Below are positions 5,637 to 37,282 of a stretch of 64,000 nt of DNA, piece after piece. Each line of letters opens with the position of its first letter. The first letter of the stretch is position 1. Made by a program: the position numbers and the translations under genes. The stretch spans positions 26,830,201 to 26,894,200 of the forward strand of contig JAWZYU010000028.1 in NCBI GenBank assembly GCA_038380435.1, written 5' to 3'. A model generated the notes under the pieces. That model was not told the DNA's origin, did no database searches, and was given only the letters and a program-made list of their open reading frames with translations. Source of the stretch: Ryuthela nishihirai (lineage: Eukaryota > Arthropoda > Arachnida > Araneae > Heptathelidae).

Positions 5637-5944
5637 GCTTACTCTTCCATGACTGTTTTCTAATTCATAGAGACCTGCTCTATTTATAGGCATTGCCAGT
5701 TTCAGCATCCCACATGACTGGAAGTGATACTTATGCTTTGCATATCATTATCAGGGTGCATATAATAATTTCTCCATTCAGTGTAGTACTGCATTCGCCT
5801 CGTCGTGGCCCATGTAGTATCGGGATATATCGTATTGGGCTGACTTCCTTGTGGCACATCCTCTCGTTGCGGCACATATAGCATTGTGTTCATTTTGACA
5901 CTGCACATTAATACTGGATTCACCTTGTCGCATCACTTATAGTA

Positions 5945-8341: not shown

Positions 8342-8687
8342 GTTCAGTCGGTAGCAACACCAGGTTTGTAATCTGCAGTCTCAGGTTCGAGTCCCAGTTG
8401 AGCTAGTATTGAGATTTATCTCAGCAAAACTCCTCGTCCTGCCCTCTGTTAGTACGTGACATCGATGGGCTTTGAAAGACCGCTGTCCGTCGGATGGGAC
8501 GTTAAGCCGTGGCTCCATGTGTGGTAGAGCCATTCCATATGCGTGTTAAAGAACATACTGGATGGCTTTGACGGAGGCTACCATTTGTCTCCTAACAGCA
8601 GTCCAGTGGGTCCCCTCCTCCAAACCTTCTCTGCGCCATCGGGGTCCTTGTGTGCTGACCATTTAGCACAAATGTGTAAAACAAGTA
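8342..8687 (+). mobile_element. Thr-tRNA-derived SINE, divergent old copy
   Basis: Head with B-box GGTTCGAGTCC and a divergent body. The tail is cut off where the MITE at 8688 begins, so the SINE predates that MITE. Confidence 0.8.
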
Positions 8688-9290
8688 CAGTCGCTCAAAA
8701 AAGTATCCGAACATTATGGTTGATTACAGAATTCATAAAAAATATCTGGCAACGAGGTTTTTAGAAATTAGTGATCTGGCAAACTTCGTGACACGAAGGT
8801 TGCCAGATCACTAATTTCTAAAAACCTCGTTGCCAGATATTTTTTTATGAATTCTGTAATCAACCATAGTGTTCGGATATTTTTTAATATATATAATGCG
8901 TATGAATATATAATGCAATGAATATGGAGCGTGTGCAGTTACCGTTCACAGCAAACTGGAGCGGTTGCGGTTAATGTTCACAGCACATTGGATCGTGTGA
9001 GCTCACAAAAACCTGGATCGTGTGGGCTCACTCACGGAAATATTGAGCGTGAGCAGTTACCGTTCACAGCAAGCTGGAGCGTGTGCAGTAACTGCACACG
9101 CTCCAGTTTGCTGTGAACGGTAACTGGAGCGTGTACAGTTGCTGTACACGCTCCAGATATTTTTCCTGAATTCTGTAATCACGTGACACGAAGGTTGCCA
9201 GATCACTAATTTCTAAAAAAAATCGTTGCCATATATTTTTTCAGAATTCTGTAATCAACCATAGTGTTCGGATACTTTTTTGACCGACTG
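8688..9290. mobile_element. Full-length long Tc1-type composite MITE
   Basis: 603 bp with terminal repeats CAGTCGCTCAAAAAAGTATC on the left and a near-match on the right, TA on both sides. Inside are one complete short MITE-like hairpin and a block of nested palindromes around GTGAACGGTAACTG, GAGCGTGTACAG and GATCGTGTGAGCTC. Best reference copy in the window. Confidence 0.85.
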
Positions 9291-9859
9291 TACCGCTTAG
9301 AGTTAAACCAAACGAACCTTCTGGTGAAAAGGACGTCTTTAAATTTAAATTAACGTTCTTGTTATTTGATAACAGAGAGAAGATCTATCGTGTGAACTAG
9401 ACTTATTGACTAAAGAAATCAGTTTGAGTCTAGTTTTTCATTTTTGTAATGCAGTCAGAAACTAATTTTTAAACACTGTGCATAAACGTTATGACCAAAA
9501 TATCTTATTTTAATAAATGTAACCTAAATTTATGCCCAAACGTTGCATATGAACTTTTCAAAAAAGTTCGACTACTTTTGGATTTTGAATGGCAAACTTT
9601 GAATAATTTCTCTGCGTTAATATTAAATAACTTTAACTGAAAAAAAGAGAATAATAGAAAAGAGCGAGAATGAGAGGAAATCATTCGCGAAAAATGGTTG
9701 GCCGAGGTCCTGTGAGAACCACCATCCCTCCACGACTAAAGAATTGAGGGTGCTTTCATGTATATTGTGGTTTAATATTTGTGGAAGCCGTAAAAATTCA
9801 CAGCAAAAATTCTGAGTGAAATTTACGAGGTACAGGAATAAGTTAGTTTTTCTTTAGCT
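9291..9859. other. Unique left flank of the palindromic element
   Basis: No recognised repeat or gene. It differs from the right flank after 23099. Confidence 0.5.
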
Positions 9860-9865
9860 AGAGAG
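9860..9865. repeat. Left 6-bp target-site duplication AGAGAG
   Basis: Matches 23094-23099 exactly and abuts the outermost base of the inverted repeat. The flank is AG-rich, so chance identity is possible. Confidence 0.6.
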
Positions 9866-9883
9866 AGTAGTAGGACCTTATCT

Positions 9884-9970
9884 TTGGTGTGAATAAATTA
9901 TCTCCGGTCCACTGCACACGGTGGCGTCCTTGTGTGAATAAATTATCTCCGCTGCACACGCTGACGGCGG
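9884..9970. repeat. Terminal direct repeats, left arm
   Basis: GTGAATAAATTATCTCCG occurs twice, near 9889 and 9934, each with a nearby TGCACACG. The right arm mirrors this at about 22989-23075. Short terminal repeats of this kind could bind a terminal or recombination protein. Confidence 0.6.
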
Positions 9971-10199
9971 GGGGTTTAATTTTTGAGGGGGGTTTAATTT
10001 TTGGTTTCCCACATTGGGGAGGGGCGCGTCCGGAAGTGTCGACCCCCACACGTGTGTGCTACCCTAGCAGTTGTTGGTCAATATTCTACCGGAAGTGTTG
10101 GAGAGGTCTTTGACCCCTTAGGTGAGCAACGGTCTAGGGCTGCCAACCGTATGCTTTTCCTAGCGTCGGGCTGACCGTGGGATTCTTGTAATGACAACC

Positions 10200-10769
10200 C
10201 ATGCGTATCAGCACGCAGACGGGATGTTAAAAAAAAGGACGCCACGACAGGTCCCGTGGGAAACCCAGATTCTTGCTGAAAATGTCCGTTGGCGAGCACG
10301 CAGGTAGAAACGAAATTTAAAAAATGACGACCCCCATTTCTTACCCCCATGCGTATCAGCACGCAGACGGGATGTTAAAAAAGGACGCCACGGAAGTTCA
10401 CGTGGGAAACCCAGATTCTTGCTGAAAATGTCCGTTGGCGCGCACGCAGGTAGAAACGAAATTTAAAAAATGATGACCCCCATTTTTTACCCCCATGCGT
10501 ATCAGCACGCAGTCGGGATGTTAAAAAAAGGACGCCACGACAGGTCCCGTGGGAAACCCAGATTCTTGCTGAAAATGTCCGTTGGCGAGCACGCAGGTAG
10601 AAACGAAATTTAAAAAATGACGACCCCCATTTCTTACCCCCATGCGTATCAGCACGCAGACGGATGTTAAAAAAAAGGACGCCACGGGAGGTCACGTGGG
10701 AAACTCAGATTCCTACTGAAAGCGACCGTTGGCGAGCACGCAGGTAGAAACGAAATTAAAAAAAAATGA
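10200..10769. repeat. Subterminal ~149-bp tandem array, left arm
   Basis: CGTATCAGCACGCAG recurs at about 10203, 10352, 10498 and 10647 (spacing 146-149 bp). Each unit holds GTTAAAAAAAGGACGCCACG and GTAGAAACGAAATTTAAAAA. A partial unit recurs at 11293-11345 on the far side of the GC-rich frame, so that frame sits between repeat units. Open minus-strand frames through the array are by-products. Confidence 0.85.
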
Positions 10770-11314
10770 ATGTCATTGGTGGGAGGGGGAGTACCCGCGA
10801 ATGCGCATACCGTCATGGAGTTGTCATACGGCGAGAAACTTGCGGCATTAAGTCGGATTCAGGGAGAGCTCGAGGATATCCTTCTGCGTATCGAGTTGGA
10901 ATCAGCTATGCGGACCTCGAGACCGACCCTTGGACAGCCGAGAGATGCCTCCGGCCGACCGAGCACCTCCAGCCAGTCAAGTGCCACCGGACAGCCACGG
11001 CCCACCGACCTGCCAAGCACCTCCGCCAAGCCCCGTACCTGGCGCCTCAGCCTAAAGAGACGTCGCCAGATGCGTGGAGAAGGCCCCCGACGCCAAGCGT
11101 CCCCACCGCTGCAGCATCTTCTGCGCCTGCGCCCGACATCGCGCAGGCAAGTGCGACTCCCGGCTACGTAGTGACGCGCTCCAACAGCTTCAGGTCCGCC
11201 AAATACAAAGCTATATTCACGTCCCAACCGGACCCACACGTAACAGCATTTGTCTACCGCCTGAGGCAGTATGGTGCCCGTTGGCAGAAATCGCCCACGC
11301 AGGCGGAATGTTAA
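10766..11314 (+). CDS. GC-rich Ser/Pro-rich reading frame(s), left arm
   Basis: Two overlapping plus-strand frames are open here in an otherwise AT-rich arm. The frame from ATG 10770 (internal ATG 10815, MELSYGEKLAALSRIQGELE) gives a short coiled-coil-like start, then QPRDASGRPSTSS-type repeats, ending at 11171. The frame from 10766 stays open to 11314 and has the more protein-like C-terminal half (APAPDIAQ...YKAIFTSQPDPHVTAFVYRLR). In the right arm a 21-bp insertion adds seven codons to the first frame but puts a stop in the second. This favours the first frame for the N-terminal half; a frameshift or splice would be needed to join the halves. Function unknown. The antisense frame 10859-11440 is also open, so coding status is uncertain. 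Confidence 0.4.
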   Translation: MNVIGGRGSTRECAYRHGVVIRRETCGIKSDSGRARGYPSAYRVGISYADLETDPWTAERCLRPTEHLQPVKCHRTATAHRPAKHLRQAPYLAPQPKETSPDAWRRPPTPSVPTAAASSAPAPDIAQASATPGYVVTRSNSFRSAKYKAIFTSQPDPHVTAFVYRLRQYGARWQKSPTQAEC

Positions 11315-11415
11315 AAAAAAACGGACGCCACGGGAGGTCACGTGATCGTGGGAGAAGGGTTTAACTCTCACATTTCCTGTACACAGATTCTTTCTCGTAT
11401 GAAGAGAAACTTTCT

Positions 11416-11425
11416 GATTTAAATC
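11416..11425. promoter_or_regulatory. GATTTAAATC palindrome, copy 1 (left arm)
   Basis: Exact 10-bp palindrome recurring at 12547-12556, 14388-14397 and 14929-14938, with a one-base variant at 12709. Mirror copy at 21513-21522. Confidence 0.5.
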
Positions 11426-11440
11426 GCGGCACGGCGTCAT

Positions 11441-12821
11441 AGCACACCGTTAGCGAAGCATGACCTGTGCGCCTGAATTACATAATTTAACGATCAAAGT
11501 ACTATCATTTTAAATATTACGTTTGAGTGTAATTTACCGTACGTTTTAAAATATGCTCACGATGTTTGTCATAAAGGTGTGATTCATTTTACGTACAATA
11601 CATAATTTATCAGTCAAGATATAAAGGCGTGAATAAATTTTACGTGTAAGTGAAATATATTATCGTGTAAGCGTACGTTGTATGACCACGTATTATAACT
11701 TAGGTTCTACACACCAATAAAAATAAGATAATGTATAACAAAAAATTATTTCTAGTAATCCTGCAGTGGATGTCCACGTATTATAACTTAGGTTGTACAC
11801 ACCAATAAAAATAAGATAATGTTTAACAAAAAAAAAAACACTTTTTGAGATGTGCATACAGAAACACAATTGGGAATTAATTTTGCTCTAGACAATTATA
11901 AAGCAGTTTTTGATTCTGCTTAAAGCAGAGGATTTGACCCGGAAGAAGATCTGTACATGCTAAAACAATGCATGGTTCAACTTATTCAATGCATCTGTTG
12001 GAATCGACTACCAAAGTATAAAGCATTGAGTCAGGCTCTTTGATTCATATGATTAACTATTATGGTTTACTACGAAAGCTTTTAGTAATGAATAGAACAG
12101 TAAATAACATCAAAACTTTTCGAGATCTGCATACAGAAATATCTGAAAACATCAGACGGGGGAAAAATTCTAGTAATCCAGTCAACATCTAAATAATTCT
12201 AGAAGTTTAATGCGAAAAAGTACCCAGGTCAACCCGTACTTCTTGAATATTCTGGACAGCAGAAACACACTTAAACGTTACCAAAGCTGAGACCGTAATG
12301 TACCTTCACGACGGGAATTCTCTATTTTTCGAAAATTCTTATACAAAAGTTTAGACATCGAGATGCTGAACCGCAATACAACACCCCAAGGGTTAAAGGA
12401 TCTTTCTAAAAACCCTCGTAACTTTGACGGTACGCTTTTTCTGCAACACACTACCCCAGGGGCTAAAAATCAAACACAGCTTGTTTTTCTGTGATGCTCC
12501 ACCGATATGAGGACCAACCCTATACACAGGTTATATTCACTTGACTGATTTAAATCAAAACTTTGGCGCACTACCCAGGGGTTAAAAAATCAAACCCAGC
12601 GTGTTTTTCTAGGTTGCACCATCGATATGTGGACAAACCAGTTTCCATATTCTTAGGGCGAACTGAAAAAAGCTGGCAAAGGTCATATTGAGATATTCAC
12701 AGTCTGATGATTTAAATACACACGCTATATTCACGGACTGATGATTAAAAACGCCATAAATATACACTTTTCTGATGAGTAAGTTGACTCGTACACGAGG
12801 AAATGTACGGACATCAAAGGG
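11441..12821. other. Non-coding interior of the left arm
   Basis: About 1.4 kb without a convincing frame. It contains a ~55-bp direct repeat (about 11690-11745 and 11779-11835, ACTTAGGTTCTACACACC) and a ~55-bp repeat around GGGGTTAAAAAATCAAAC (about 12473-12520 and 12574-12625). Related CCAAGGGTTAAAGG-like motifs lie near 12388 and 12820. Mirror: about 20118-21497. Confidence 0.6.
12547..12556. promoter_or_regulatory. GATTTAAATC palindrome, copy 2 (left arm)
   Basis: Exact copy inside the non-coding interior, next to the GGGGTTAAAAAATC repeats. Mirror copy at 20383-20392. Confidence 0.45.
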
Positions 12822-13150
12822 TTAAGATTTTACGTCTGAGGTCTTGCACTCTGACCGTGCTTTCAGTTTAAAACATCGTTGTCTGTGTGTTTCAAGTTGC
12901 CACAGGACGCGTGATTTTTTACGAGTCGACGTATTAAAGCCGCAATAGGCGACCACGCAGCCGAGCAACATTATGGAGACAGACGATGTCCTTGAAAGAC
13001 GCAACTCCGTCGGGACACTGGCAGGGGAGGATTTGAAAAACTCGAGGCCTGAATGGCTTTTCACTCCCGTTATTTTCTAAGACATAACAAATATTCTGAT
13101 ATCACTTATTTAAATTCAGAAACTATTCTCCATCTTTATCACTGTTCATT

Positions 13151-13351
13151 TTAATACCACCTAAGTTTACTATATTTGTTGATATGTACTGGGGTGTCAA
13201 ACCACTTGAACGTAAAAGCAAACTGTCTTTGGTACATTTGCATGCACACTTGACCCCACTGCTCTAAAACAGGTTTCACGAACTTTCTTTGGGTATTACA
13301 GCGCAAACGTATGGACTGCGCTATTGGTAAAGAATGTTTTACTGCGAACAT
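13151..13351 (-). CDS. Unrecognised 66-aa ORF, left arm
   Basis: Starts at a true ATG and is unchanged in the right arm (19588-19788). It is basic and rich in aromatic residues (FAFTFKWFDTPVHINKY). No motif recognised. Neighbouring frames at 12822-13064 and 13378-13569 open only from non-ATG codons, so this may be part of a decayed or spliced gene. Confidence 0.2.
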   Translation of the reverse strand: MFAVKHSLPIAQSIRLRCNTQRKFVKPVLEQWGQVCMQMYQRQFAFTFKWFDTPVHINKYSKLRWY

Positions 13352-13774
13352 TAATCTCTTTCATATCGGGAGTAAAATTACACGCACAAACGAGTTAGGT
13401 TGTTCATGTTGGAAGAAAATTTAAGATTCTTATTTCCTGTGTTTTTCTCTTGTAGGTACGTATAAAGAATGTTTTGGAATAGACGTTTACACCATAATTG
13501 CTTAATGCTATCACATTTGTACACGCCAAGACATGTGAAAAAGTTTGCAGCGTAAAGTCCCTGTAACACATTTTGAGATTCACTTAAAACTCCTCTGGGC
13601 GTTTACACGCAATTTTCTGTGTAATTCCGCTGTCTGGGAAATTAGCCATCACTTTCTGCCTATAGTTTTTGACAGCCATCTTTGTCTCGCTAGTTCGTAT
13701 AGGGTTTAGGTAAACCTTTTCAAAACCGTTAAGAAAGAAATCACAATGACAATAAAATCAGATACACTATTTAT

Positions 13775-14030
13775 TTAATAACTATTAGTACATATACAGC
13801 CCGCGTCGCAGGAAAGTTCCATACAGACAGGAATGATATCTAAACGATGTAACTGAACTTCTTTCACAAAAATGTTTAGCGATAACGATGAATGTTTCTT
13901 ACATCTTCTGGGAAATAGTCTACAACTGTTATAGCAAGGTACCAATGGCGAAGCTGACTTTACCCGCAATACAGTTCTTTGCGCATTCTGACACATTCTT
14001 AACTGAACGGTGAAGAGCCATAGTGTATAG
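13775..14030 (-). pseudogene. Broken partial copy of the 274-aa gene, left arm
   Basis: Reverse-strand sequence aligns with the 3' third of the 274-aa gene. Shared stretches include GAACTGTATTG, GTCAGCTTCGCCATT, GAAACATTCAT and the block ending TTTTTGTG(G)AA(G)AGG. Gaps and frame changes remove the Cys/His cluster's spacing. It lies directly downstream of the BED-like ORF. Mirror copy at about 18909-19164. Confidence 0.6.
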
Positions 14031-14036
14031 TTAAAT

Positions 14037-14333
14037 TCATTCACTTCCCATCGCTGAAACCTTTGCTTGGTCCCTCAAGGCCTCTAGATGAGTTTGTAGG
14101 ATGTCGAGGTAGCGTCTCATTTTGGAGGGTTCTGACGAGTTCATTACAAATAAGATTTCATGGTCTAGCCATTGCGAAGATGTTACGGCTGGGCCTTTAC
14201 ATTGATGGCTTTTAAGTCGCGCTACAAGTCCGATGACGTCCTTGTTACACTGTAAACAAACGGCACGAAATCCCTTTCCTTTAGGGTATTTCTTGAAACC
14301 TTTCCAAATAGGATCGCTCTTCCGTCCTGACAT
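14037..14333 (-). CDS. BED-like zinc-finger protein, left arm
   Basis: 98 aa from ATG 14333 (MSGRKSDPIW). The N-terminal 45 residues match a BED-type finger: aromatic residues W and F, then C-x2-C (CLQC) and an L-x2-H-x-C end (LKSHQC), the arrangement found in hAT-type DNA-binding domains, though with a short H-C spacing. The C-terminal half is helical and charged (SEPSKMRRYLDILQTHLEAL). Expected role: DNA binding, possibly of repeats or promoters of the element. The right-arm copy differs at one residue (HEILF versus HEILS). A CCAAT and TATA-like promoter lies upstream (14383-14470). Confidence 0.6.
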   Translation of the reverse strand: MSGRKSDPIWKGFKKYPKGKGFRAVCLQCNKDVIGLVARLKSHQCKGPAVTSSQWLDHEILFVMNSSEPSKMRRYLDILQTHLEALRDQAKVSAMGSE

Positions 14334-14382
14334 GTTCAACAAGTCGCTTACTGACAGCAAATGATACAGGCACACAGTGGTA

Positions 14383-14470
14383 CTTATGATTTAAATCCGA
14401 ACCTTCAACCATTCAGTGTGAACCAATGAATGGCTTCTGCAATTCAGTGTGAACTATATCTCGACCAATG
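14383..14470 (-). promoter_or_regulatory. Promoter region of the BED-like gene, left arm
   Basis: On the minus strand the TATA-like CATAAGTA overlaps the end of GATTTAAATC (14388-14397). Further upstream come two CCAAT motifs, each followed by a GGCTTCTGCAA-type repeat. The distal one reads TCTCGACCAATG on the plus strand (14459-14470), also found upstream of the 274-aa gene. Confidence 0.45.
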
Positions 14471-14584
14471 AAAGGCTTCTGCAAGATTCTCGTAACCTAT
14501 TTACGCGCTCCAACAACCCTACCTCTTTTTTTTTTTATAGAACCTTAATGATCCGGTGGAAAATTCTCTAGTTTTCGAGGTAAT

Positions 14585-14746
14585 ATGACTCTCATGTGTG
14601 TAGTTTGTGAGTCTCTTCATTTCAAATGCGCATGTGATGACGAGGACTATTTTTATTGTGATGGTTTTGAGAGGATGTCTTTAGAAAAGAATTGGTTATG
14701 TTCGAAATGTATCAATCTACCCAGTAACACTTCTAAGCTTAAATAA
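14585..14746 (+). CDS. PHD-like Cys-rich mini-protein, left arm
   Basis: 53 aa, divergent from the BED-like gene. Cysteines are C5-x2-C8, C15-x-C17, C25, then W37-L-C39-x2-C42. The closing WLCSKC is typical of PHD fingers, while the middle His-Cys pair is atypical, so this is either a degenerate PHD/RING-like zinc binder or an exon of a longer protein. The right-arm copy is at 18195-18356. Short for a free-standing gene. Expected role: chromatin or protein binding, inferred from the fold only. Confidence 0.45.
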   Translation: MTLMCVVCESLHFKCACDDEDYFYCDGFERMSLEKNWLCSKCINLPSNTSKLK

Positions 14747-14836
14747 ACAACAGAAGAACGCGTTATCACGTGATGTAACAACAGTTGCCATGGAGACTAA
14801 AAGTTGTACAACAGATAAATCTAATGTGTATAACGG

Positions 14837-15004
14837 CTAGTCCCGTTTTCTTACATATCTCAAAATAAGAGGTAAAGCAACGTGAAGTACTTCTGGATTA
14901 AATCTGATACTAATCGCATTACTCAACTGATTTAAATCCACAATAATGTTATTCAGGACTGCCTGTACAGTATGAGAAATTAATAAACACCCGGCCTTTT
15001 CCAT
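14837..15004 (-). CDS. Unrecognised 55-aa ORF, left arm
   Basis: From ATG 15004 (MEKAGCLLISHTVQ) to a stop before 14837; the frame stays open upstream to about 15070 without ATG. It encloses the GATTTAAATC copy at 14929-14938. Predominantly hydrophobic/helical, ending RYVRKRD. No family recognised. Intact in both arms (17937-18104). Confidence 0.25.
   Translation of the reverse strand: MEKAGCLLISHTVQAVLNNIIVDLNQLSNAISIRFNPEVLHVALPLILRYVRKRD
14929..14938. promoter_or_regulatory. GATTTAAATC palindrome, copy 4 (left arm)
   Basis: Exact copy inside the short ORF 14837-15004. Mirror copy at 18003-18012. Confidence 0.45.
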
Positions 15005-15220
15005 TACAGGGACATGAATAAGAAAAGACCTAGAACTCTGACAGTTGCTTGTTACAGAAGAAGCTAACAATTTAGAACGAGACGATTTCTTTCATAGCCA
15101 ACACTGATATCAAATCTACAACATTATTACTCTAATAACGAACAGTTTTCAGATAGTCATTCTTTTACATTTCTCGAATCAGTTAAGGAGAACAATGAAA
15201 CAGCATTGCGGTAAAAATCT

Positions 15221-15226
15221 TTTATT
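15221..15226 (-). promoter_or_regulatory. Polyadenylation signal AATAAA, left-arm 274-aa gene
   Basis: 61 bp beyond the stop codon on the minus strand. Confidence 0.5.
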
Positions 15227-15286
15227 CATACACTAAGAAATTACAATGACGCCCAAACAGATATTGAACAGAAATTAGTAACACTA

Positions 15287-16111
15287 TTAGCATTTATTTA
15301 GTACATATTCAGAGGTACGAACCAGTTCGTCGTACACTTTGTTTAGTAATATAGGAAAGTGTAACATGTAGGTATAATTATCTTCAACTCCGACCTCTTC
15401 CACAAAAAGTTTAGCGATATCACTTAAATGAATGTTTCTCAAGGCTTCTGCGAAATGAACATCCACTGATTCAACGGATATAGCAACACACGAATGGCGA
15501 AGCTGACTCGGATGATCTACTTCACACCCAATACAGTTCGTACGAAGAATCCGAAAAATTTCTTTTCTGACGAGAGTATTTAATGTTTTTATGAAACTTA
15601 GCTTGACTCTCTGATCATACGGTTCAACATTAGACAGTCTTGGAGTATGGTCTGTAGTTAATTCGACATCTTTTACCGCATTAGAAAAGTTATTGAACTT
15701 CAGAGCCATCAAGCTGCATGTGATATAGTTGCGGGAATCTTTTAACCACGACCATTGTTTGATGCTGAGATGTACCGAAGAAATCGTTGAAGTACCGTCG
15801 TCACACACACCACCTTTTTCAATGACCACCCCATTTTTACCCTTGAATACCACCATGCCGTGCAGTTCATACGCGAAGGTAGACGTATAGGCGAGTGTAG
15901 AAGTCAGTCCACACCACTGTTCTTCGGATAATATAACCGAAGCCTTTATGGGTCTAAACGGAATGTCATAACACTTCTGAAGCAAACATATGTGGACTTC
16001 GGGAACGTTCTTGCAAATCTTCACCAACAAGTCAGAGCCTAGCTGGTAGGCGTCATCTCCAATAGCAAACCGCTCCACGGGGAGATCACTTTCGGGCTGA
16101 ACACAGGCCAT
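15287..16111 (-). CDS. 274-aa PC4-like protein, left arm copy
   Basis: The start is ATG 16111 (MACVQPES), 52 bp after a TATA box. Residues about 16-75 resemble the PC4/p15 single-strand-DNA-binding fold: F-x-I-G near the start, a beta-rich VHICLLQKCYD, then RPIKASVILSEEQWCGL, matching the family's P-x-K-x2-I-x-L-x3-Q-W-x2-L pattern. A second, weaker copy ends VHLSIKQWSWL. The C-terminal third has C-x2-C-x3-H-x5-H-x-C (CIGCEVDHPSQLRHSC), a likely zinc site. Expected role: nucleic-acid binding in transcription or replication of the element. It is the only long gene in the arm and is identical in both copies, consistent with recent duplication or constraint. Confidence 0.7.
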   Translation of the reverse strand: MACVQPESDLPVERFAIGDDAYQLGSDLLVKICKNVPEVHICLLQKCYDIPFRPIKASVILSEEQWCGLTSTLAYTSTFAYELHGMVVFKGKNGVVIEKGGVCDDGTSTISSVHLSIKQWSWLKDSRNYITCSLMALKFNNFSNAVKDVELTTDHTPRLSNVEPYDQRVKLSFIKTLNTLVRKEIFRILRTNCIGCEVDHPSQLRHSCVAISVESVDVHFAEALRNIHLSDIAKLFVEEVGVEDNYTYMLHFPILLNKVYDELVRTSEYVLNKC

Positions 16112-16162
16112 CGTTAACACTTCAATACTGCAAAACTATGTCTTTTCACATATCAAGTGTAC

Positions 16163-16219
16163 TACTTATACCTAAAACCTTTGACGTCACCTGGCTAAAT
16201 AGACCACCATTGGTCGAGA
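16163..16219 (-). promoter_or_regulatory. Core promoter of the left 274-aa gene
   Basis: On the minus strand, in transcription order: TCTCGACCAATGG (16207-16219), a perfect CRE TGACGTCA (16182-16189), then TATAAGTA (16163-16170), about 50 bp before the ATG. This spacing is that of a standard RNA polymerase II promoter. Confidence 0.65.
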
Positions 16220-16424
16220 TCTAATTCCTAGTGATATTAAAAACCAATTGTAGAAGAGTAATTTCTTAGTGTATGAATTGGAGGACGGGTCTTTTTTCGT
16301 CACACATACAGTACAATATTAACCCGCAATAATTTATTTTTATACTTTTTATAATTTTCTTTTCACCGTTTTTATTTCTTCTTAAAGTACAAGTATATGG
16401 AAGAAGGACACACGCAGAAACTGA

Positions 16425-16515
16425 TTTAAGTAACTGACCCCCAGAAAAAAAAAATCTCTGATTTCAAATAATTTTAAACCAGAGATTTTTTTTTTTCTGG
16501 GGGTCAGTTACTTAA
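16425..16515. repeat. Central hairpin of the palindrome
   Basis: Stem ACTGACCCCCAG, an A/T run and TCTCTG close a 19-nt loop (16461-16479, ATTTCAAATAATTTTAAAC). The loop itself is weakly self-complementary. The A-run length differs by one between arms. Confidence 0.9.
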
Positions 16516-16721
16516 ATCAGTTTCTGCGTGTGTCCTTCTTCCATATACTTGTACTTTAAGAAGAAATAAAAACGGTGAAAAGAAAATTATAAAAAGTATA
16601 AAAATAAATTATTGCGGGTTAATATTGTACTGTATGTGTGACGAAAAAAGACCCGTCCTCCAATTCATACACTAAGAAATTACTCTTCTACAATTGGTTT
16701 TTAATATCACTAGGAATTAGA

Positions 16722-16778
16722 TCTCGACCAATGGTGGTCTATTTAGCCAGGTGACGTCAAAGGTTTTAGGTATAAGTA
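16722..16778 (+). promoter_or_regulatory. Core promoter of the right 274-aa gene
   Basis: TCTCGACCAATGG (16722-16734), CRE TGACGTCA (16752-16759) and TATAAGTA (16771-16778), then ATG at 16830. With the left copy it forms a divergent promoter pair around the central hairpin. Confidence 0.65.
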
Positions 16779-16829
16779 GTACACTTGATATGTGAAAAGA
16801 CATAGTTTTGCAGTATTGAAGTGTTAACG

Positions 16830-17654
16830 ATGGCCTGTGTTCAGCCCGAAAGTGATCTCCCCGTGGAGCGGTTTGCTATTGGAGATGACGCCTACCAGCT
16901 AGGCTCTGACTTGTTGGTGAAGATTTGCAAGAACGTTCCCGAAGTCCACATATGTTTGCTTCAGAAGTGTTATGACATTCCGTTTAGACCCATAAAGGCT
17001 TCGGTTATATTATCCGAAGAACAGTGGTGTGGACTGACTTCTACACTCGCCTATACGTCTACCTTCGCGTATGAACTGCACGGCATGGTGGTATTCAAGG
17101 GTAAAAATGGGGTGGTCATTGAAAAAGGTGGTGTGTGTGACGACGGTACTTCAACGATTTCTTCGGTACATCTCAGCATCAAACAATGGTCGTGGTTAAA
17201 AGATTCCCGCAACTATATCACATGCAGCTTGATGGCTCTGAAGTTCAATAACTTTTCTAATGCGGTAAAAGATGTCGAATTAACTACAGACCATACTCCA
17301 AGACTGTCTAATGTTGAACCGTATGATCAGAGAGTCAAGCTAAGTTTCATAAAAACATTAAATACTCTCGTCAGAAAAGAAATTTTTCGGATTCTTCGTA
17401 CGAACTGTATTGGGTGTGAAGTAGATCATCCGAGTCAGCTTCGCCATTCGTGTGTTGCTATATCCGTTGAATCAGTGGATGTTCATTTCGCAGAAGCCTT
17501 GAGAAACATTCATTTAAGTGATATCGCTAAACTTTTTGTGGAAGAGGTCGGAGTTGAAGATAATTATACCTACATGTTACACTTTCCTATATTACTAAAC
17601 AAAGTGTACGACGAACTGGTTCGTACCTCTGAATATGTACTAAATAAATGCTAA
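16830..17654 (+). CDS. 274-aa PC4-like protein, right arm copy
   Basis: Same protein, residue for residue, as the left copy at 15287-16111. The start is ATG 16830; the in-frame GTG nine bases upstream is not needed. PC4-like region at residues 16-75, second W-containing repeat near residue 125, zinc-like cluster near residue 200, and a helical, acidic C-terminus (VEEVGVEDNYTYMLHF). AATAAA follows 61 bp after the stop. No transmembrane segment or signal peptide is visible. Family assignment rests on motif reading, and an unrelated beta-rich fold is possible. Confidence 0.7.
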   Translation: MACVQPESDLPVERFAIGDDAYQLGSDLLVKICKNVPEVHICLLQKCYDIPFRPIKASVILSEEQWCGLTSTLAYTSTFAYELHGMVVFKGKNGVVIEKGGVCDDGTSTISSVHLSIKQWSWLKDSRNYITCSLMALKFNNFSNAVKDVELTTDHTPRLSNVEPYDQRVKLSFIKTLNTLVRKEIFRILRTNCIGCEVDHPSQLRHSCVAISVESVDVHFAEALRNIHLSDIAKLFVEEVGVEDNYTYMLHFPILLNKVYDELVRTSEYVLNKC

Positions 17655-17714
17655 TAGTGTTACTAATTTCTGTTCAATATCTGTTTGGGCGTCATTGTAA
17701 TTTCTTAGTGTATG

Positions 17715-17720
17715 AATAAA
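17715..17720 (+). promoter_or_regulatory. Polyadenylation signal AATAAA, right-arm 274-aa gene
   Basis: Within CTTAGTGTATGAATAAAAG. A related CTTAGTGTATGAATTGG lies inverted near the gene's other side, so gene-end sequence was duplicated on both sides. Confidence 0.5.
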
Positions 17721-17936
17721 AGATTTTTACCGCAATGCTGTTTCATTGTTCTCCTTAACTGATTCGAGAAATGTAAAAGAATGACTATCTGAAAACTGTT
17801 CGTTATTAGAGTAATAATGTTGTAGATTTGATATCAGTGTTGGCTATGAAAGAAATCGTCTCGTTCTAAATTGTTAGCTTCTTCTGTAACAAGCAACTGT
17901 CAGAGTTCTAGGTCTTTTCTTATTCATGTCCCTGTA

Positions 17937-18104
17937 ATGGAAAAGGCCGGGTGTTTATTAATTTCTCATACTGTACAGGCAGTCCTGAATAACATTATTG
18001 TGGATTTAAATCAGTTGAGTAATGCGATTAGTATCAGATTTAATCCAGAAGTACTTCACGTTGCTTTACCTCTTATTTTGAGATATGTAAGAAAACGGGA
18101 CTAG
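17937..18104 (+). CDS. Unrecognised 55-aa ORF, right arm
   Basis: Mirror of 14837-15004, with the same protein. The frame is open from about 17871 but the first ATG is 17937. GATTTAAATC lies inside (18003-18012). Confidence 0.25.
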   Translation: MEKAGCLLISHTVQAVLNNIIVDLNQLSNAISIRFNPEVLHVALPLILRYVRKRD

Positions 18105-18194
18105 CCGTTATACACATTAGATTTATCTGTTGTACAACTTTTAGTCTCCATGGCAACTGTTGTTACATCACGTGATAACGCGTTCTTCTGTTGT

Positions 18195-18356
18195 TTATTT
18201 AAGCTTAGAAGTGTTACTGGGTAGATTGATACATTTCGAACATAACCAATTCTTTTCTAAAGACATCCTCTCAAAACCATCACAATAAAAATAGTCCTCG
18301 TCATCACATGCGCATTTGAAATGAAGAGACTCACAAACTACACACATGAGAGTCAT
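18195..18356 (-). CDS. PHD-like Cys-rich mini-protein, right arm
   Basis: Mirror of 14585-14746 with the same cysteine pattern and WLCSKC ending. Divergent from the BED-like gene that starts at 18606. Confidence 0.45.
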   Translation of the reverse strand: MTLMCVVCESLHFKCACDDEDYFYCDGFERMSLEKNWLCSKCINLPSNTSKLK

Positions 18357-18468
18357 ATTACCTCGAAAACTAGAGAATTTTCCACCGGATCATTAAGGTT
18401 CTATAAAAAAAAAAGAGGTAGGGTTGTTGGAGCGCGTAAATAGGTTACGAGAATCTTGCAGAAGCCTT

Positions 18469-18558
18469 TCATTGGTCGAGATATGTTCACACTGAATTGC
18501 AGAAGCCATTCATTGGTTCACACTGAATGGTTGAAGGTTCGGATTTAAATCATAAGTA
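18469..18558 (+). promoter_or_regulatory. Promoter region of the BED-like gene, right arm
   Basis: Inverted CCAAT repeats, then GATTTAAATC (18542-18551) running into CATAAGTA (18551-18558), 48 bp before ATG 18606. It differs from the left arm by a one-base indel. Confidence 0.45.
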
Positions 18559-18605
18559 CCACTGTGTGCCTGTATCATTTGCTGTCAGTAAGCGACTTGT
18601 TGAAC

Positions 18606-18902
18606 ATGTCAGGACGGAAGAGCGATCCTATTTGGAAAGGTTTCAAGAAATACCCTAAAGGAAAGGGATTTCGTGCCGTTTGTTTACAGTGTAACAAGGA
18701 CGTCATCGGACTTGTAGCGCGACTTAAAAGCCATCAATGTAAAGGCCCAGCCGTAACATCTTCGCAATGGCTAGACCATGAAATCTTATCTGTAATGAAC
18801 TCGTCAGAACCCTCCAAAATGAGACGCTACCTCGACATCCTACAAACTCATCTAGAGGCCTTGAGGGACCAAGCAAAGGTTTCAGCGATGGGAAGTGAAT
18901 GA
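18606..18902 (+). CDS. BED-like zinc-finger protein, right arm
   Basis: 98 aa, mirror of 14037-14333, with Ser instead of Phe in HEILS. CLQC and LKSHQC zinc ligands are intact. The stop overlaps an out-of-frame ATG by four bases (ATGA), after which the broken 274-aa-gene copy begins. Confidence 0.6.
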   Translation: MSGRKSDPIWKGFKKYPKGKGFRAVCLQCNKDVIGLVARLKSHQCKGPAVTSSQWLDHEILSVMNSSEPSKMRRYLDILQTHLEALRDQAKVSAMGSE

Positions 18903-18908
18903 ATTTAA

Positions 18909-19164
18909 CTATACACTATGGCTCTTCACCGTTCAGTTAAGAATGTGTCAGAATGCGCAAAGAACTGTATTGCGGGTAAAGTCAGCTTCGCCATTGGTAC
19001 CTTGCTATAACAGTTGTAGACTATTTCCCAGAAGATGTAAGAAACATTCATCGTTATCGCTAAACATTTTTGTGAAAGAAGTTCAGTTACATCGTTTAGA
19101 TATCATTCCTGTCTGTATGGAACTTTCCTGCGACGCGGGCTGTATATGTACTAATAGTTATTAA
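18909..19164 (+). pseudogene. Broken partial copy of the 274-aa gene, right arm
   Basis: Mirror of the relic at 13775-14030. It is followed by AATAAA at 19164-19169, as the true gene is, so the gene's 3' end may have been carried along. Confidence 0.6.
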
Positions 19165-19587
19165 ATAAATAGTGTATCTGATTTTATTGTCATTGTGATT
19201 TCTTTCTTAACGGTTTTGAAAAGGTTTACCTAAACCCTATACGAACTAGCGAGACAAAGATGGCTGTCAAAAACTATAGGCAGAAAGTGATGGCTAATTT
19301 CCCAGACAGCGGAATTACACAGAAAATTGCGTGTAAACGCCCAGAGGAGTTTTAAGTGAATCTCAAAATGTGTTACAGGGACTTTACGCTGCAAACTTTT
19401 TCACATGTCTTGGCGTGTACAAATGTGATAGCATTAAGCAATTATGGTGTAAACGTCTATTCCAAAACATTCTTTATACGTACCTACAAGAGAAAAACAC
19501 AGGAAATAAGAATCTTAAATTTTCTTCCAACATGAACAACCTAACTCGTTTGTGCGTGTAATTTTACTCCCGATATGAAAGAGATTA

Positions 19588-19788
19588 ATGTTCGCAGTAA
19601 AACATTCTTTACCAATAGCGCAGTCCATACGTTTGCGCTGTAATACCCAAAGAAAGTTCGTGAAACCTGTTTTAGAGCAGTGGGGTCAAGTGTGCATGCA
19701 AATGTACCAAAGACAGTTTGCTTTTACGTTCAAGTGGTTTGACACCCCAGTACATATCAACAAATATAGTAAACTTAGGTGGTATTAA
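19588..19788 (+). CDS. Unrecognised 66-aa ORF, right arm
   Basis: Same peptide as 13151-13351, from a true ATG. A 31-aa ATG-started frame (MAVKNYRQKVMANF) lies upstream at 19260-19355. The two may be exons or fragments of one decayed gene. Confidence 0.2.
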   Translation: MFAVKHSLPIAQSIRLRCNTQRKFVKPVLEQWGQVCMQMYQRQFAFTFKWFDTPVHINKYSKLRWY

Positions 19789-20117
19789 AATGAACAGTGA
19801 TAAAGATGGAGAATAGTTTCTGAATTTAAATAAGTGATATCAGAATATTTGTTATGTCTTAGAAAATAACGGGAGTGAAAAGCCATTCAGGCCTCGAGTT
19901 TTTCAAATCCTCCCCTGCCAGTGTCCCGACGGAGTTGCGTCTTTCAAGGACATCGTCTGTCTCCATAATGTTGCTCGGCTGCGTGGTCGCCTATTGCGGC
20001 TTTAATACGTCGACTCGTAAAAAATCACGCGTCCTGTGGCAACTTGAAACACACAGACAACGATGTTTTAAACTGAAAGCACGGTCAGAGTGCAAGACCT
20101 CAGACGTAAAATCTTAA

Positions 20118-21497
20118 CCCTTTGATGTCCGTACATTTCCCCGTGTACGAGTCAACTTACTCATCAGAAAAGTGTATATTTATGGCGTTTTTAATCATCA
20201 GTCCGTGAATATAGCGTGTGTATTTAAATCATCAGACTGTGAATATCTCAATATGACCTTTGCCAGCTTTTTTCAGTTCGCCCTAAGAATATGGAAACTG
20301 GTTTGTCCACATATCGATGGTGCAACCTAGAAAAACACGCTGGGTTTGATTTTTTAACCCCTGGGTAGTGCGCCAAAGTTTTGATTTAAATCAGTCAAGT
20401 GAATATAACCTGTGTATAGGGTTGGTCCTCATATCGGTGGAGCATCACAGAAAAACAAGCTGTGTTTGATTTTTAGCCCCTGGGGTAGTGTGTTGCAGAA
20501 AAAGCGTACCGTCAAAGTTACGAGGGTTTTTAGAAAGATCCTTTAACCCTTGGGGTGTTGTATTGCGGTTCAGCATCTCGATGTCTAAACTTTTGTATAA
20601 GAATTTTCGAAAAATAGAGAATTCCCGTCGTGAAGGTACATTACGGTCTCAGCTTTGGTAACGTTTAAGTGTGTTTCTGCTGTCCAGAATATTCAAGAAG
20701 TACGGGTTGACCTGGGTACTTTTTCGCATTAAACTTCTAGAATTATTTAGATGTTGACTGGATTACTAGAATTTTTCCCCCGTCTGATGTTTTCAGATAT
20801 TTCTGTATGCAGATCTCGAAAAGTTTTGATGTTATTTACTGTTCTATTCATTACTAAAAGCTTTCGTAGTAAACCATAATAGTTAATCATATGAATCAAA
20901 GAGCCTGACTCAATGCTTTATACTTTGGTAGTCGATTCCAACAGATGCATTGAATAAGTTGAACCATGCATTGTTTTAGCATGTACAGATCTTCTTCCGG
21001 GTCAAATCCTCTGCTTTAAGCAGAATCAAAAACTGCTTTATAATTGTCTAGAGCAAAATTAATTCCCAATTGTGTTTCTGTATGCACATCTCAAAAAGTG
21101 TTTTTTTTTTGTTAAACATTATCTTATTTTTATTGGTGTGTACAACCTAAGTTATAATACGTGGACATCCACTGCAGGATTACTAGAAATAATTTTTTGT
21201 TATACATTATCTTATTTTTATTGGTGTGTAGAACCTAAGTTATAATACGTGGTCATACAACGTACGCTTACACGATAATATATTTCACTTACACGTAAAA
21301 TTTATTCACGCCTTTATATCTTGACTGATAAATTATGTATTGTACGTAAAATGAATCACACCTTTATGACAAACATCGTGAGCATATTTTAAAACGTACG
21401 GTAAATTACACTCAAACGTAATATTTAAAATGATAGTACTTTGATCGTTAAATTATGTAATTCAGGCGCACAGGTCATGCTTCGCTAACGGTGTGCT
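20118..21497. other. Non-coding interior of the right arm
   Basis: Mirror of 11441-12821 with the same direct repeats and two GATTTAAATC copies (20383-20392, 21513-21522). Confidence 0.6.
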
Positions 21498-21623
21498 ATG
21501 ACGCCGTGCCGCGATTTAAATCAGAAAGTTTCTCTTCATACGAGAAAGAATCTGTGTACAGGAAATGTGAGAGTTAAACCCTTCTCCCACGATCACGTGA
21601 CCTCCCGTGGCGTCCGTATTTTT

Positions 21624-22193
21624 TTAACATTCCGCCTGCGTGGGCGATTTCTGCCAACGGGCACCATACTGCCTCAGGCGGTAGACAAATGCTGTTACGT
21701 GTGGGTCCGGTTGGGACGTGAATATAGCTTTGTATTTGGCGGACCTGAAGCTGTTGGAGCGCGTCACTACGTAGCCGGGAGTCGCACTTGCCTGCGCGAT
21801 GTCGGGCGCAGGCGCAGAAGATGCTGCAGCGGTGGGGACGCTTGGCGTCGGGGGCCTTCTCCACGCATCTGGCGACGTCTCTTTAGGCTGAGGCGTAAGG
21901 TACGGGGCTTGGCGGAGGTGCTTGGCAGGTCGGTGGGCCGTGGCTGTCCGGTGGCACTTGACTGGCCGGAGTTATCTCTCGGCTGGCTGGAGGTGCTCGG
22001 TCGGCCGGAGGCATCTCTCGGCTGTCCAAGGGTCGGTCTCGAGGTCCGCATAGCTGATTCCAACTCGATACGCAGAAGGATATCCTCGAGCTCTCCCTGA
22101 ATCCGACTTAATGCCGCAAGTTTCTCGCCGTATGACAACTCCATGACGGTATGCGCATTCGCGGGTACTCCCCCTCCCACCAATGACATTCAT
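21624..22193 (-). CDS. GC-rich Ser/Pro-rich reading frame(s), right arm
   Basis: Mirror of 10766-11314 with a 21-bp in-frame insertion (QPRDNSG unit). The frame from 22189 (140 aa, to 21767) is intact. The alternative frame from 22193 ends early at 21972 but reopens in the C-terminal half. Substitutions near 21895 change Trp to Leu in one frame and Ala to Thr in the other. Function unknown. Confidence 0.4.
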
Positions 22194-22759
22194 TTTTTTT
22201 TAATTTCGTTTCTACCTGCGTGCTCGCCAACGGTCGCTTTCAGTAGGAATCTGAGTTTCCCACGTGACCTCCCGTGGCGTCCTTTTTTTTAACATCCGTC
22301 TGCGTGCTGATACGCATGGGGGTAAGAAATGGGGGTCGTCATTTTTTAAATTTCGTTTCTACCTGCGTGCTCGCCAACGGACATTTTCAGCAAGAATCTG
22401 GGTTTCCCACGGGACCTGTCGTGGCGTCCTTTTTTTAACATCCCGACTGCGTGCTGATACGCATGGGGGTAAAAAATGGGGGTCATCATTTTTTAAATTT
22501 CGTTTCTACCTGCGTGCGCGCCAACGGACATTTTCAGCAAGAATCTGGGTTTCCCACGTGAACTTCCGTGGCGTCCTTTTTTAACATCCCGTCTGCGTGC
22601 TGATACGCATGGGGGTAAGAAATGGGGGTCGTCATTTTTTAAATTTCGTTTCTACCTGCGTGCTCGCCAACGGACATTTTCAGCAAGAATCTGGGTTTCC
22701 CACGGGACCTGTCGTGGCGTCCTTTTTTTTAACATCCCGTCTGCGTGCTGATACGCATG
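22190..22759. repeat. Subterminal ~149-bp tandem array, right arm
   Basis: Inverted counterpart of 10200-10769, with four unit starts at matching positions and only scattered differences. Confidence 0.85.
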
Positions 22760-23093
22760 GGTTGTCATTACAAGAATCCCACGGTCAGCCCGACGCTAGG
22801 AAAAGCATACGGTTGGCAGCCCTAGACCGTTGCTCACCTAAGGAGTCAAAGACCTCTCCAACACTTCCGGTAGAATATTGACCAACAACTGCTAGGGTAG
22901 CACACACGTGTGGGGGTCGACACTTCCGGACGCGCCCCTCCCCAATGTGGGAAACCAAAAATTAAACCCCCCTCAAAAATTAAACCCCCCGCCGTCAGCG
23001 TGTGCAGCGGAGATAATTTATTCACACAAGGACGCCACCGTGTGCAGTGGACCGGAGATAATTTATTCACACCAAAGATAAGGTCCTACTACT

Positions 23094-23099
23094 AGAGAG
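23094..23099. repeat. Right 6-bp target-site duplication AGAGAG
   Basis: Follows the last base of the inverted repeat. The next bases (ATAAAAG) do not match the left flank. Confidence 0.6.
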
Positions 23100-24330: not shown

Positions 24331-25078
24331 TATTTCTGACTTGCAACTCAGAGGACTCTTTATCCATGCACACAGAGGACTCTTTCGCCATGCACTCAGA
24401 AGACTCTTTCTCCATGCGCTCAGAGGACTATTTCGCCATGCACTCAGAGGACTCTTTCTCCATGCACTCAGAGGACTTTTTTCCATGCACTCAGAGGACT
24501 ATTTCGCCATGCACTCAGAGGACTTTTTCTCCATGCACTCAGAGGACTACTTCGCCATGCACTCAGAGGACTCTTTCTCCATGCACACAGAGGACTCTTT
24601 CTCCATGCACACAGAGGACTCTTTCTCCATGCACACAGAGGACTCTTTCTCCATGCACTCAGAGGACCCTTTCTCCATGCACTCAGAGGACTCTTTCTCC
24701 ATGCACTCAGAGGACCCTTTCTCCATGCACTCAGAGGACCCTTTCTCCATGCACTGAGAGGACTCTTTCTCCACGCACTCAGAGGACTCTTTCTCCACGC
24801 ACTCAGAGGACTCTTTCTCCATGCACACAGAGGACTCTTTCTCCATGCACTCAGAGGACTCTTTCTCCATGCACTCAGAGGACCCTTTCTCCATGCACTG
24901 AGAGGACTCTTTCTCCACGCACTCAGAGGACTCTTTCTCCATGCACTCAGAGGACGCTTTCTCCACGCACTCAGAGGACTCTTTCTCCATGCACTCAGAG
25001 GACTGTTTCTCCATGCACACCGAGGACTCTTTCTCCATGCACACAGAGGACTCTTTCCCCATGCACTCAGAGGACTGC
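24331..25078. repeat. 24-bp minisatellite, about 31 copies
   Basis: Unit TTTCTCCATGCACTCAGAGG plus four bases. Because 24 is a multiple of three and the unit has no stop in several frames, long frames are open on both strands (24138-25100 plus, PCTQRTLS repeats; 24547-25062 minus, MEKESSEC repeats). Variants are point changes (CACTCAG/CACACAG, CATG/CACG). Coding use is unsupported. Confidence 0.9.
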
Positions 25079-25822
25079 GACTCGATACCAGCAGTTCTAA
25101 TAATATTTTAAACCCATTTTATTAACATATAACTTATTTTTGCAATTCCTTGTAAAATATGTTAAACATAACCAAAGTAGACAACTGTTCAAGTGATAAT
25201 TTCAATTTCAAATTCAAATTAATTTCACACTTTTGATGCATTACAAACATGTAATTTAAAACTTATAATAGCAAAAGGAATTAATGTTTTTCTTTTCCAA
25301 AGTAAGTAGACAATTTTGAAAGTGTAAAATTCAAATTACTATTATTATACTATTCAAATAACTGTATAAATACTAATACAATACTGATACAAATAGAAAT
25401 TATTATTACTATTTACTAAGAATAATTCAGTTTAATATATATATAATTTATAATCGAAACTGAGTCAAAAAAACAGTAAACCTACATACTGTTTTAGAAT
25501 ATTTTTCAAGAACAATTTTTAAAATACTATTAGAGAGGGGAGGGAAAATACACATCAATATATATTCAGAGAAAGATAAATACCATATCAGAGAGCCAAA
25601 TACTGAAGGTCAGTAGAAAGGATAAGAACGCCTTTCCGATTTCGCTCCCCCGCCCCCCGAGAATATTTGTTAAATAATGCGTTTTGAGAACAGCTGAGAA
25701 AAAAGGGAAAGGAATATATGCATTAAGGAACGTCTTTTCCCTCCAAATAGTTCAATCCAATTCAATTCAATGTCTAAGGCGTCTCCCGAAAACATTTCTC
25801 CGACATTCGGGCCCTGCCTGTA
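25079..25822. other. AT-rich spacer
   Basis: Very AT-rich with microsatellite-like TATA runs near 25435. Nothing recognised. Confidence 0.4.
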
Positions 25823-37271: not shown

Positions 37272-37282
37272 TCGATCTAACT

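What the first reader, a model, noticed from the sequence alone, without database searches (positions are those of the whole stretch)
9866..23093. A 13.2 kb near-perfect palindrome that looks like one integrated element
Two 6.6 kb arms in inverted orientation, a 19-nt loop, matching outer termini and a flanking 6-bp direct repeat. The arms carry the same small set of genes twice. Palindromes of this size with defined ends and a target duplication are not a standard transposon class. Arms differ by scattered substitutions, homopolymer changes and one 21-bp indel.
Basis: seen in the sequence. Interest (0 to 1): 0.92.

Follow-up and report, generated by a model that had tools for sequence, protein, structure and literature searches.

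The report
Palindromic satellite of Polinton transposons

Summary
The palindrome is real: 9866-23093 (13,228 bp), arms 99.5% identical, 19-nt loop, termini (AGT)2//(ACT)2, flanking duplication AGAGAG. An assembly artefact is very unlikely: with the window, 15 inverted-pair loci in the same genome (3.1 Gb, species undetermined) have different flanks, 12 with a perfect 6-bp duplication and 3 matching at 5 of 6 positions. It is a Polinton/Maverick derivative. The outer 1.37 kb of each arm resembles the left end of 14.9-15.2 kb Polintons found here, whose ORFs include protein-primed polymerase, integrase and protease; the palindrome keeps only parts of the first ~200 polymerase residues plus ORFs of its own. 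So it is a non-autonomous, palindromic Polinton satellite, presumably mobilised in trans. The two arms of a copy are usually each other's closest relatives, and the 30 terminal nucleotides match within a copy but mostly vary between copies. Several copies have diverged arms, so I infer that arms are equalised during extrachromosomal (hairpin, protein-primed) replication rather than in the chromosome. One copy carries, in one arm only, a patch up to 99.7% identical to Polintons: recent exchange with a presumed helper. Ten literature searches listed no palindromic Polinton. New variant of a known kind; the replication step is inferred.

The parts
9860..9865 (.). left copy of the 6-bp target-site duplication AGAGAG
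   Evidence: duplications at other loci:
9866..16460 (+). left arm of the palindrome, terminus (AGT)2
16461..16479 (.). 19-nt loop at the centre
16480..23093 (-). right arm, inverted, terminus (ACT)2
23094..23099 (.). right copy of the target-site duplication AGAGAG
9866..11231 (+). outer part of left arm homologous to the LEFT end of Polintons of the same genome, reaching beyond their TIR
21707..23093 (-). the same Polinton-like segment in the right arm (inner limit converted from the left arm)
10198..10764 (+). 147-bp tandem repeat, 3.9 copies
22195..22761 (-). 147-bp tandem repeat, 3.9 copies, mirror image
10770..11231 (+). remnant of the Polinton pPolB N-terminus (residues 9-111 and 173-202 of the 1398-aa ORF match), in two frames
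21707..22189 (-). same pPolB N-terminal remnant, right arm; keeps the 21 bp missing from the left arm
14037..14333 (-). 99-aa ORF, BED-finger-like by eye only (no Pfam match)
18606..18902 (+). mirror copy of the 99-aa ORF (one residue different)
14585..14746 (+). 53-aa Cys-rich ORF, sub-threshold PHD_2 match; frameshifted in 2 of 7 copies (C17, C4)
15287..16120 (-). 277-aa ORF, open in both arms; PC4-like by eye only; motif CIGCEVDHPSQLRHSC shared with P0001
16821..17654 (+). mirror copy of the 277-aa ORF, same protein sequence
13775..14044 (-). region holding a decayed second copy of the C-terminal part of the 277-aa gene (13857-13959 resembles 15393-15508, 71%)

Best explanation
A non-autonomous, palindromic satellite of a Polinton/Maverick family. 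Shown: it is an insertion with (AGT)2//(ACT)2 ends and a 6-bp duplication; it belongs to a multicopy family with inverted pairs at many loci; its ends are like those of Polintons in the same genome; no integrase, ATPase, protease or capsid-type ORF of those Polintons and only N-terminal parts of pPolB were found in it; arms are mostly alike within a copy; one copy has recently exchanged part of an end with a Polinton. Inferred: the Polintons supply pPolB/terminal protein and integrase in trans. The linear palindrome is copied by protein-primed strand displacement from its identical ends; each displaced strand is self-complementary, folds into a ~6.6 kb hairpin, and mismatch repair of that hairpin, or turn-around synthesis at the central stem-loop, makes the two arms equal before the integrase inserts the duplex. 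After insertion the arms drift apart; deletions near the centre shorten one arm.
For: Ends and duplications: 15 inverted-pair loci, 12 perfect 6/6 and 3 at 5/6. Polintons: 3 of 3 with both ends fetched have a perfect 6-bp duplication and the same end motif, TIR pieces spanning ~270-375 bp; DNA_pol_B_2 6.6e-47, rve 1.8e-15, Peptidase_C5 5.4e-6. Published Maverick signature (AGT)2//(ACT)2 with 6-bp duplications: PMC8097293, passages. Shared outer 1.37 kb, 5 of 5 Polinton loci. Of 13 Polinton ORFs only pPolB matches the palindrome below E 0.3. Arms pair by copy: within-copy substitutions 0-0.3% (once 1.0%) against 0-5.8% between copies (C11 has no within-copy value there; trees). Terminal 30 nt over 21 elements: mean left-right difference 0.5 against 9.2 between elements; 0 of 10,000 shuffles as low. 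The 277-aa gene: 18 two-match clusters, all divergent (-+), none tandem or convergent among the matches listed. C11 right arm: a 300-bp stretch 98.7-99.7% to Polintons P34, P24, P3 against 76-78% to the palindromic arms compared.
Against: Mobilisation in trans and the hairpin intermediate were not observed. Movement as plain duplex with occasional conversion could mimic part of the pattern. C11 breaks the arm-pairing rule in its outer part. In the trees, C3's arms (segment A) and the window's arms (outer segment; with C11 in A, B and C) are not resolved as pairs. 14 of 210 between-element comparisons of the terminal 30 nt are identical. The 15 loci were chosen because both arms matched; 106 of 124 clusters of the 277-aa gene show one match only, though at least five of those are known inverted pairs, and the 4 others examined have a shortened second arm. 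Imperfect duplications do not track arm divergence well: the three 5/6 loci have outer arm identities of 97.8, 98.1 and 99.3%, while C2b (92.7%) and C2a (96.5%) are perfect. Counts are lower bounds because the search scores part of its candidates. Polinton capsid genes were named by eye and the ATPase matches are below cut-off.
Confidence: 0.8

Rival explanations
1. Assembly or sequencing artefact: a read that passed a hairpin adaptor, or mishandled repeats, made a false palindrome.
For: Such artefacts do make long palindromes in long-read assemblies (recalled). Three or four of the arm differences are single-base changes in or near homopolymers.
Against: A fold-back artefact would not put a 6-bp direct repeat at both outer ends, nor recur at 15 loci with different flanks and duplications, nor give locus-specific asymmetric deletions and substitutions.
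Confidence: 0.03
2. In-chromosome origin: the element inserts with unlike arms and arm-to-arm gene conversion later makes them alike, as in Y-chromosome palindromes (recalled).
For: Arms within a copy are more alike than between copies.
Against: Several copies have diverged outer arms (BLAST identity, gaps counted): C2b 92.7% over 817 columns though 98.4% over another 386, C2a 96.5%, C24a and C37 97.8%, C4b 98.1%, so conversion is not efficient everywhere; terminal nucleotides next to the flanks are matched too; the Polinton patch in C11 was not spread to the other arm.
Confidence: 0.12
3. A separate foldback-type transposon with very long inverted repeats and its own unrecognised transposase (for example the 277-aa protein), which only borrowed Polinton ends.
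For: The 277-aa ORF is stop-free in 31 of the 33 best matches listed and pooled dN/dS is 0.38 over 21 non-independent pairs of 7 copies.
Against: The outer 1.37 kb is Polinton-like beyond the TIR; one arm has a patch up to 99.7% identical to Polintons; the 277-aa protein matched no Pfam family above cut-off and no solved structure.
Confidence: 0.05

Closest known systems
Polinton/Maverick transposons (class Polintoviricetes)
   Same: (AGT)2//(ACT)2 ends, 6-bp duplication, left-end sequence beyond the TIR, overall length within the range of intact vertebrate Mavericks (12.7-24.6 kb, PMC8097293 passages).
   Different: Inverted repeats of 6.6 kb meeting at a 19-nt loop, against 46-1,447 bp TIRs in intact vertebrate Mavericks (PMC8097293) and ~270-375 bp in this genome; no integrase, ATPase, protease or complete polymerase found.
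Palindromic derivatives of protein-primed linear replicons (adenovirus 'symmetric recombinants'; yeast pGKL1 and Neurospora kalilo derivatives)
   Same: Both ends are the same end of the parent, with a mirror-image body; expected from fold-back during protein-primed strand-displacement replication. The kalilo paper was seen only as a title in a reference list; the rest is recalled.
   Different: As recalled, those are defective virus or plasmid forms; here a chromosomal family has persisted and diversified.
Foldback (FB/Galileo) transposons
   Same: Inverted repeats make up most of the element and contain tandem repeats (recalled).
   Different: Tied to another transposase superfamily with other duplication lengths (recalled, not tested); here the ends are Polinton-like.

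Membership tests
Polinton/Maverick | end motif (AGT)2//(ACT)2 or similar | tested here: met
   29 of 30 ends at 15 inverted-pair loci begin AGTAGT, one AGTAAT
Polinton/Maverick | 6-bp target-site duplication | tested here: met
   12 of 15 inverted-pair loci perfect, 3 at 5/6; of 3 one-match loci tested 2 perfect, 1 at 4/6
Polinton/Maverick | protein-primed DNA polymerase B | tested here: not met
   only residues 9-111 and 173-202 of the 1398-aa ORF match
Polinton/Maverick | retroviral-like integrase | tested here: not met
   no tblastn match of the Polinton integrase at E 1; present in the Polinton at C34
Polinton/Maverick | TIRs of tens to ~1,450 bp around a unique body | tested here: not met
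   arms of ~6.6 kb meet at a 19-nt loop
non-autonomous Polinton derivative | shares ends with Polintons of the same genome | tested here: met
   outer 1.37 kb shared with 5 of 5 Polinton loci fetched; C11 patch 98.7-99.7% to three of them
non-autonomous Polinton derivative | mobilised by enzymes supplied in trans | not testable with these tools
   inferred from shared ends and missing genes
protein-primed palindromic (fold-back) replicon | hairpin or palindromic extrachromosomal form | not testable with these tools
   only chromosomal copies are visible; arm equality and matched ends are indirect
Foldback (FB/Galileo) | family-specific ends and transposase | not tested
   characteristics recalled only; the Polinton-like ends make it unlikely

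The most novel reading that the evidence does not exclude
A persistent hairpin satellite of a Polinton: a palindromic genome that replicates through a ~6.6 kb self-paired strand, carries its own conserved gene in two copies, depends on full Polintons for polymerase, integrase and possibly capsids (its 13.2 kb lies near the 14.9-15.2 kb of the helpers), and re-equalises its halves as it replicates; a natural counterpart of defective palindromic adenovirus genomes, fixed as a transposon family.
Probability: 0.45. Interest if true: 0.85.

Novelty: new variant of a known kind. Interest (0 to 1): 0.72.

Why it matters
Polintons are thought to replicate by protein priming, but direct evidence is scarce (recalled). 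A family whose halves are mostly alike within each copy, and whose termini match within but mostly not between copies, may leave a footprint of that replication in the chromosome. As far as the listings of my ten searches show, no palindromic Polinton satellite is described there. It makes three things testable: hairpin intermediates, help in trans, and packaging of satellites.

Tried and rejected
Pfam on 8 of the palindrome's ORFs gave nothing above cut-off. A search of 5.8 billion proteins gave one partner of the 277-aa protein, P0001 (E 4.7e-3), sharing CIGCEVDHPSQLRHSC; solved structures, viral contigs and phages gave none. Homology between the 277-aa protein and the Polinton's 273-aa PC4-domain protein is suggested by layout to my eye, but sequence does not show it (best E 0.036 for a single pair; no tblastn match at E 1); a database search with the 273-aa protein gave no hit at E 0.1. 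Structure models were too poor to use, mean pLDDT 44.0 and 36.6, so no fold search was made. A Polinton integrase search of viral contigs found no relative. I considered the one-match loci as possible non-palindromic ancestors, but the 4 examined run from the gene into the centre-side sequence and then into an inverted, shortened second arm, so they look derived. Selection on the 99-aa ORF could not be judged (no synonymous differences). The host species and an empty site could not be determined because the genome search did not complete (for a haemocyanin family; 108, 111, 114, 115, 118 for the empty site).
Full report
WHAT IS THERE. The palindrome runs from 9866 to 23093 (13,228 bp). The arms are 9866-16460 and 16480-23093, the loop is 16461-16479, and AGAGAG flanks it at 9860-9865 and 23094-23099. 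Outside the loop the arms differ by 6 substitutions and 5 indels; they are 99.54% identical with the centre left out.

NOT AN ARTEFACT. In the own genome (3.11 Gb, 1,680 contigs, unnamed) window 9800-10300 gave 113 matches, with 40 of 252 candidates scored; besides the window, six facing pairs 9.5-13.4 kb apart stood out and were fetched. An interior probe (41 matches, 40 of 531 candidates scored) led to eight more pairs. With the window this makes 15 inverted-pair loci whose two ends I read; 29 of the 30 ends begin AGTAGT, one AGTAAT. Their duplications all differ: window AGAGAG, C11 CAGTGC, C17 AATGTA, C8 ACTACC, C30 TAGATT, C12 GCCGAT, C4 AACGTA; C3 TACGGC, C2b CTTATG, C24b AGCATG/AGCACG; C24c TATATA, C2a CATGGG; C37 GTCACA, C24a TAAATT/TACATT, C4b CAAGTC/CAGGTC. 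That is 12 perfect and 3 at 5 of 6. The loci were picked because both arms matched, so they are not a random sample. In C24c and C4b the probe matches lie 22 and 11 kb apart, and the middle pieces fetched there do not match the window element; they are inverted pairs with something in the centre.

WHAT IT BELONGS TO. Five other loci share only the outer 1.37 kb of the arm (window 9866-11231; main aligned pieces 82-96% identical, two longer gappy alignments 69-72%) and then continue into long ORFs. For one of them (C34) and its neighbour ORFs Pfam finds DNA_pol_B_2 (6.6e-47), rve integrase (1.8e-15), adenovirus-type protease (5.4e-6), ATPase matches below cut-off and a marginal PC4 domain (25.1 bits, cut-off 25); 4 of the 9 ORFs sent had no match, among them two that I take for capsid proteins. 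The three with both ends fetched are 14.9-15.2 kb long by their end positions, have TIR pieces spanning ~270-375 bp, and carry perfect 6-bp duplications AAGGCC, CACTTG and CTCATG. These are Polintons/Mavericks: PMC8097293 (passages) gives (AGT)2//(ACT)2 ends, 6-bp duplications, sizes of 12.7-24.6 kb and TIRs of 46-1,447 bp for intact vertebrate elements. The palindrome's arms thus begin with the left end of a Polinton, past the TIR and into the polymerase gene. Of 13 Polinton ORFs compared by tblastn only pPolB matched below E 0.3 (residues 9-111 and 173-202). PMC11071308 (abstract and passages) identifies the N-terminal domain of Polinton pPolB as the terminal protein; the remnant here is split into two frames in the window and in C11 (left), C17, C8 and C12, and runs on in one frame in C30 and C4. 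C24b and C3 lack most of window 10060-11470, so the polymerase piece is not part of every subfamily.

ARMS ARE ALIKE PER COPY. In four segments, substitutions between the arms of a copy number 0-3 per ~900-1,380 bp (once 12 in 1,157, C4 outer segment), while copies differ by 0 to 5.8% (C11, and C12 and C4 in some segments, had no within-copy value). In the trees, segment A: 8 of 9 copies have arms paired or identical (window and C11 share one sequence), C3 unresolved beside C24b. Segment B: 6 of 6 paired or identical. Segment C: 4 of 5 paired, window unresolved with C11. Outermost segment: 5 of 6 paired with mixed support, window unresolved, and C11's left arm groups with Polinton P34 (94/93). 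Nearest relatives change along the element: C4 is nearest C30 in the outer segment but C17 at 14260-15260. The signals are mirrored: both arms of C30 and of C4 carry the same 11-bp gap, and both arms of C17 and C4 form one clade in segment C, as if recombinant halves were later copied to the other side. The terminal 30 nt of 21 elements (15 inverted-pair loci, 3 one-match loci, 3 Polintons) differ on average by 0.5 between the two ends and by 9.2 between elements (14 of 210 pairs identical); 0 of 10,000 random pairings was as low (ends were located with short anchors chosen from earlier outputs, mostly the same for both ends). The 3 Polintons also have identical ends, as expected if ends are regenerated from one another in protein-primed replication.

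NOT MAINLY BY CONVERSION IN PLACE. Outer arm identities, gaps counted: C2b 92.7% over 817 columns (98.4% over another 386), C2a 96.5%, C24a 97.8%, C37 97.8%, C4b 98.1%, C3 98.6%, C24b 99.3%, C24c 99.4%. Arms thus seem to drift once inserted, and I infer that equalisation happens before insertion. Imperfect duplications (C24a, C4b, C24b) do not track this divergence well. The simplest route is a displaced self-complementary strand that folds into a hairpin and is repaired, or copied by turn-around at the central stem-loop. This step is inferred, not shown.

EXCHANGE WITH THE PRESUMED HELPER. In C11 the right arm's inner windows are 100% identical to its own left arm, but a 300-bp outer stretch is 98.7-99.7% identical to Polintons P34, P24 and P3 (95% to P8b and P11b) and 76-78% to the seven palindromic arms compared. 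This is the exception to arm pairing, and evidence that palindromes and Polintons have recently shared a template.

CENTRES AND SHORTENED ARMS. Window, C8, C30 and C24b share one centre type; C3, C24a and C2a have a different inner sequence, with C24a lopsided and C2a with a spacer of ~242 nt. C11 and C12 have lost centre-proximal DNA on one side; C37 and C2b look off-centre. The 277-aa gene gives 146 matches in the genome (142 of 2,351 candidates scored), 142 after merging, in 124 clusters: 18 divergent pairs, 106 single, none tandem or convergent. 'Single' is not 'one-armed': C2a, C2b, C4b, C24c and C37, known inverted pairs, fall among them. Of four other singles examined, each runs from the gene through centre-side sequence into an inverted, shortened second arm; I did not fetch their whole first arms. 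Two of three tested have perfect duplications (C2 ATCGTG, C36 AATGCC), C9 matches at 4 of 6; C7 was not tested. So the family has more members than the 15, many lopsided.

THE GENES. The 277-aa ORF is open in both window arms and stop-free in 31 of the 33 best matches. Pooled dN/dS over 21 pairs of 7 copies is 0.38; pairs are not independent, so this is a hint of purifying selection. It shares CIGCEVDHPSQLRHSC with one database protein. Its resemblance to the Polinton's PC4-domain protein is by layout only and unproven.

LITERATURE. Ten searches listed no palindromic Polinton; I saw listings, and passages of PMC6431247, PMC11071308, PMC8097293, PMC4028283 and PMC12368964. Most subscription journals are missing from the library. 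Palindromic derivatives of adenovirus and yeast killer plasmids are recalled; the kalilo hairpin derivative was seen as a reference title only.

VERDICT. A real, probably recently active, palindromic, non-autonomous Polinton satellite family. Membership 'is a full Polinton' fails (no complete polymerase, no integrase, wrong TIR); 'derives from and inserts like a Polinton' is well supported; hairpin replication and help in trans are inferred.

Noticed in passing
51595-54682: Tandem array, 189-bp unit, 16.3 copies, 97% matches; related short copies elsewhere in the window, e.g. 38910-39043, 55353-55544.
   Followed up: no
47324-48679: Tandem array, 113-bp unit, 12 copies, 96% matches.
   Followed up: no
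24346-25076 and 32829-33606: 24-bp unit x30.5, lying in a repetitive ORF ('CTQRTLSP'), and a 30-bp unit x25.9.
   Followed up: no
2207-2535, 7027-7411, 29691-30023, 30604-30979, 37282-37667, 37925-38311, 50266-50652, 57857-58241: Dispersed repeat family of up to ~390 bp in both orientations; a second family lies at 5942-6341, 8685-9293, 25820-26663, 27486-27990, 35603-36162, 45006-45654. Not classified.
   Followed up: no
3680-3757: Rfam mir-130 match, 44.7 bits against a gathering score of 40.6; possibly chance in a repeat-rich window.
   Followed up: no
L072:1227-4109 and L071 (C7, C36): ORFs of an endonuclease/reverse-transcriptase LINE-like element within or beside shortened palindrome copies (named by eye).
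   Followed up: no
L026:823-1437: 205-aa ORF near the right end of a Polinton, no Pfam match.
   Followed up: partly
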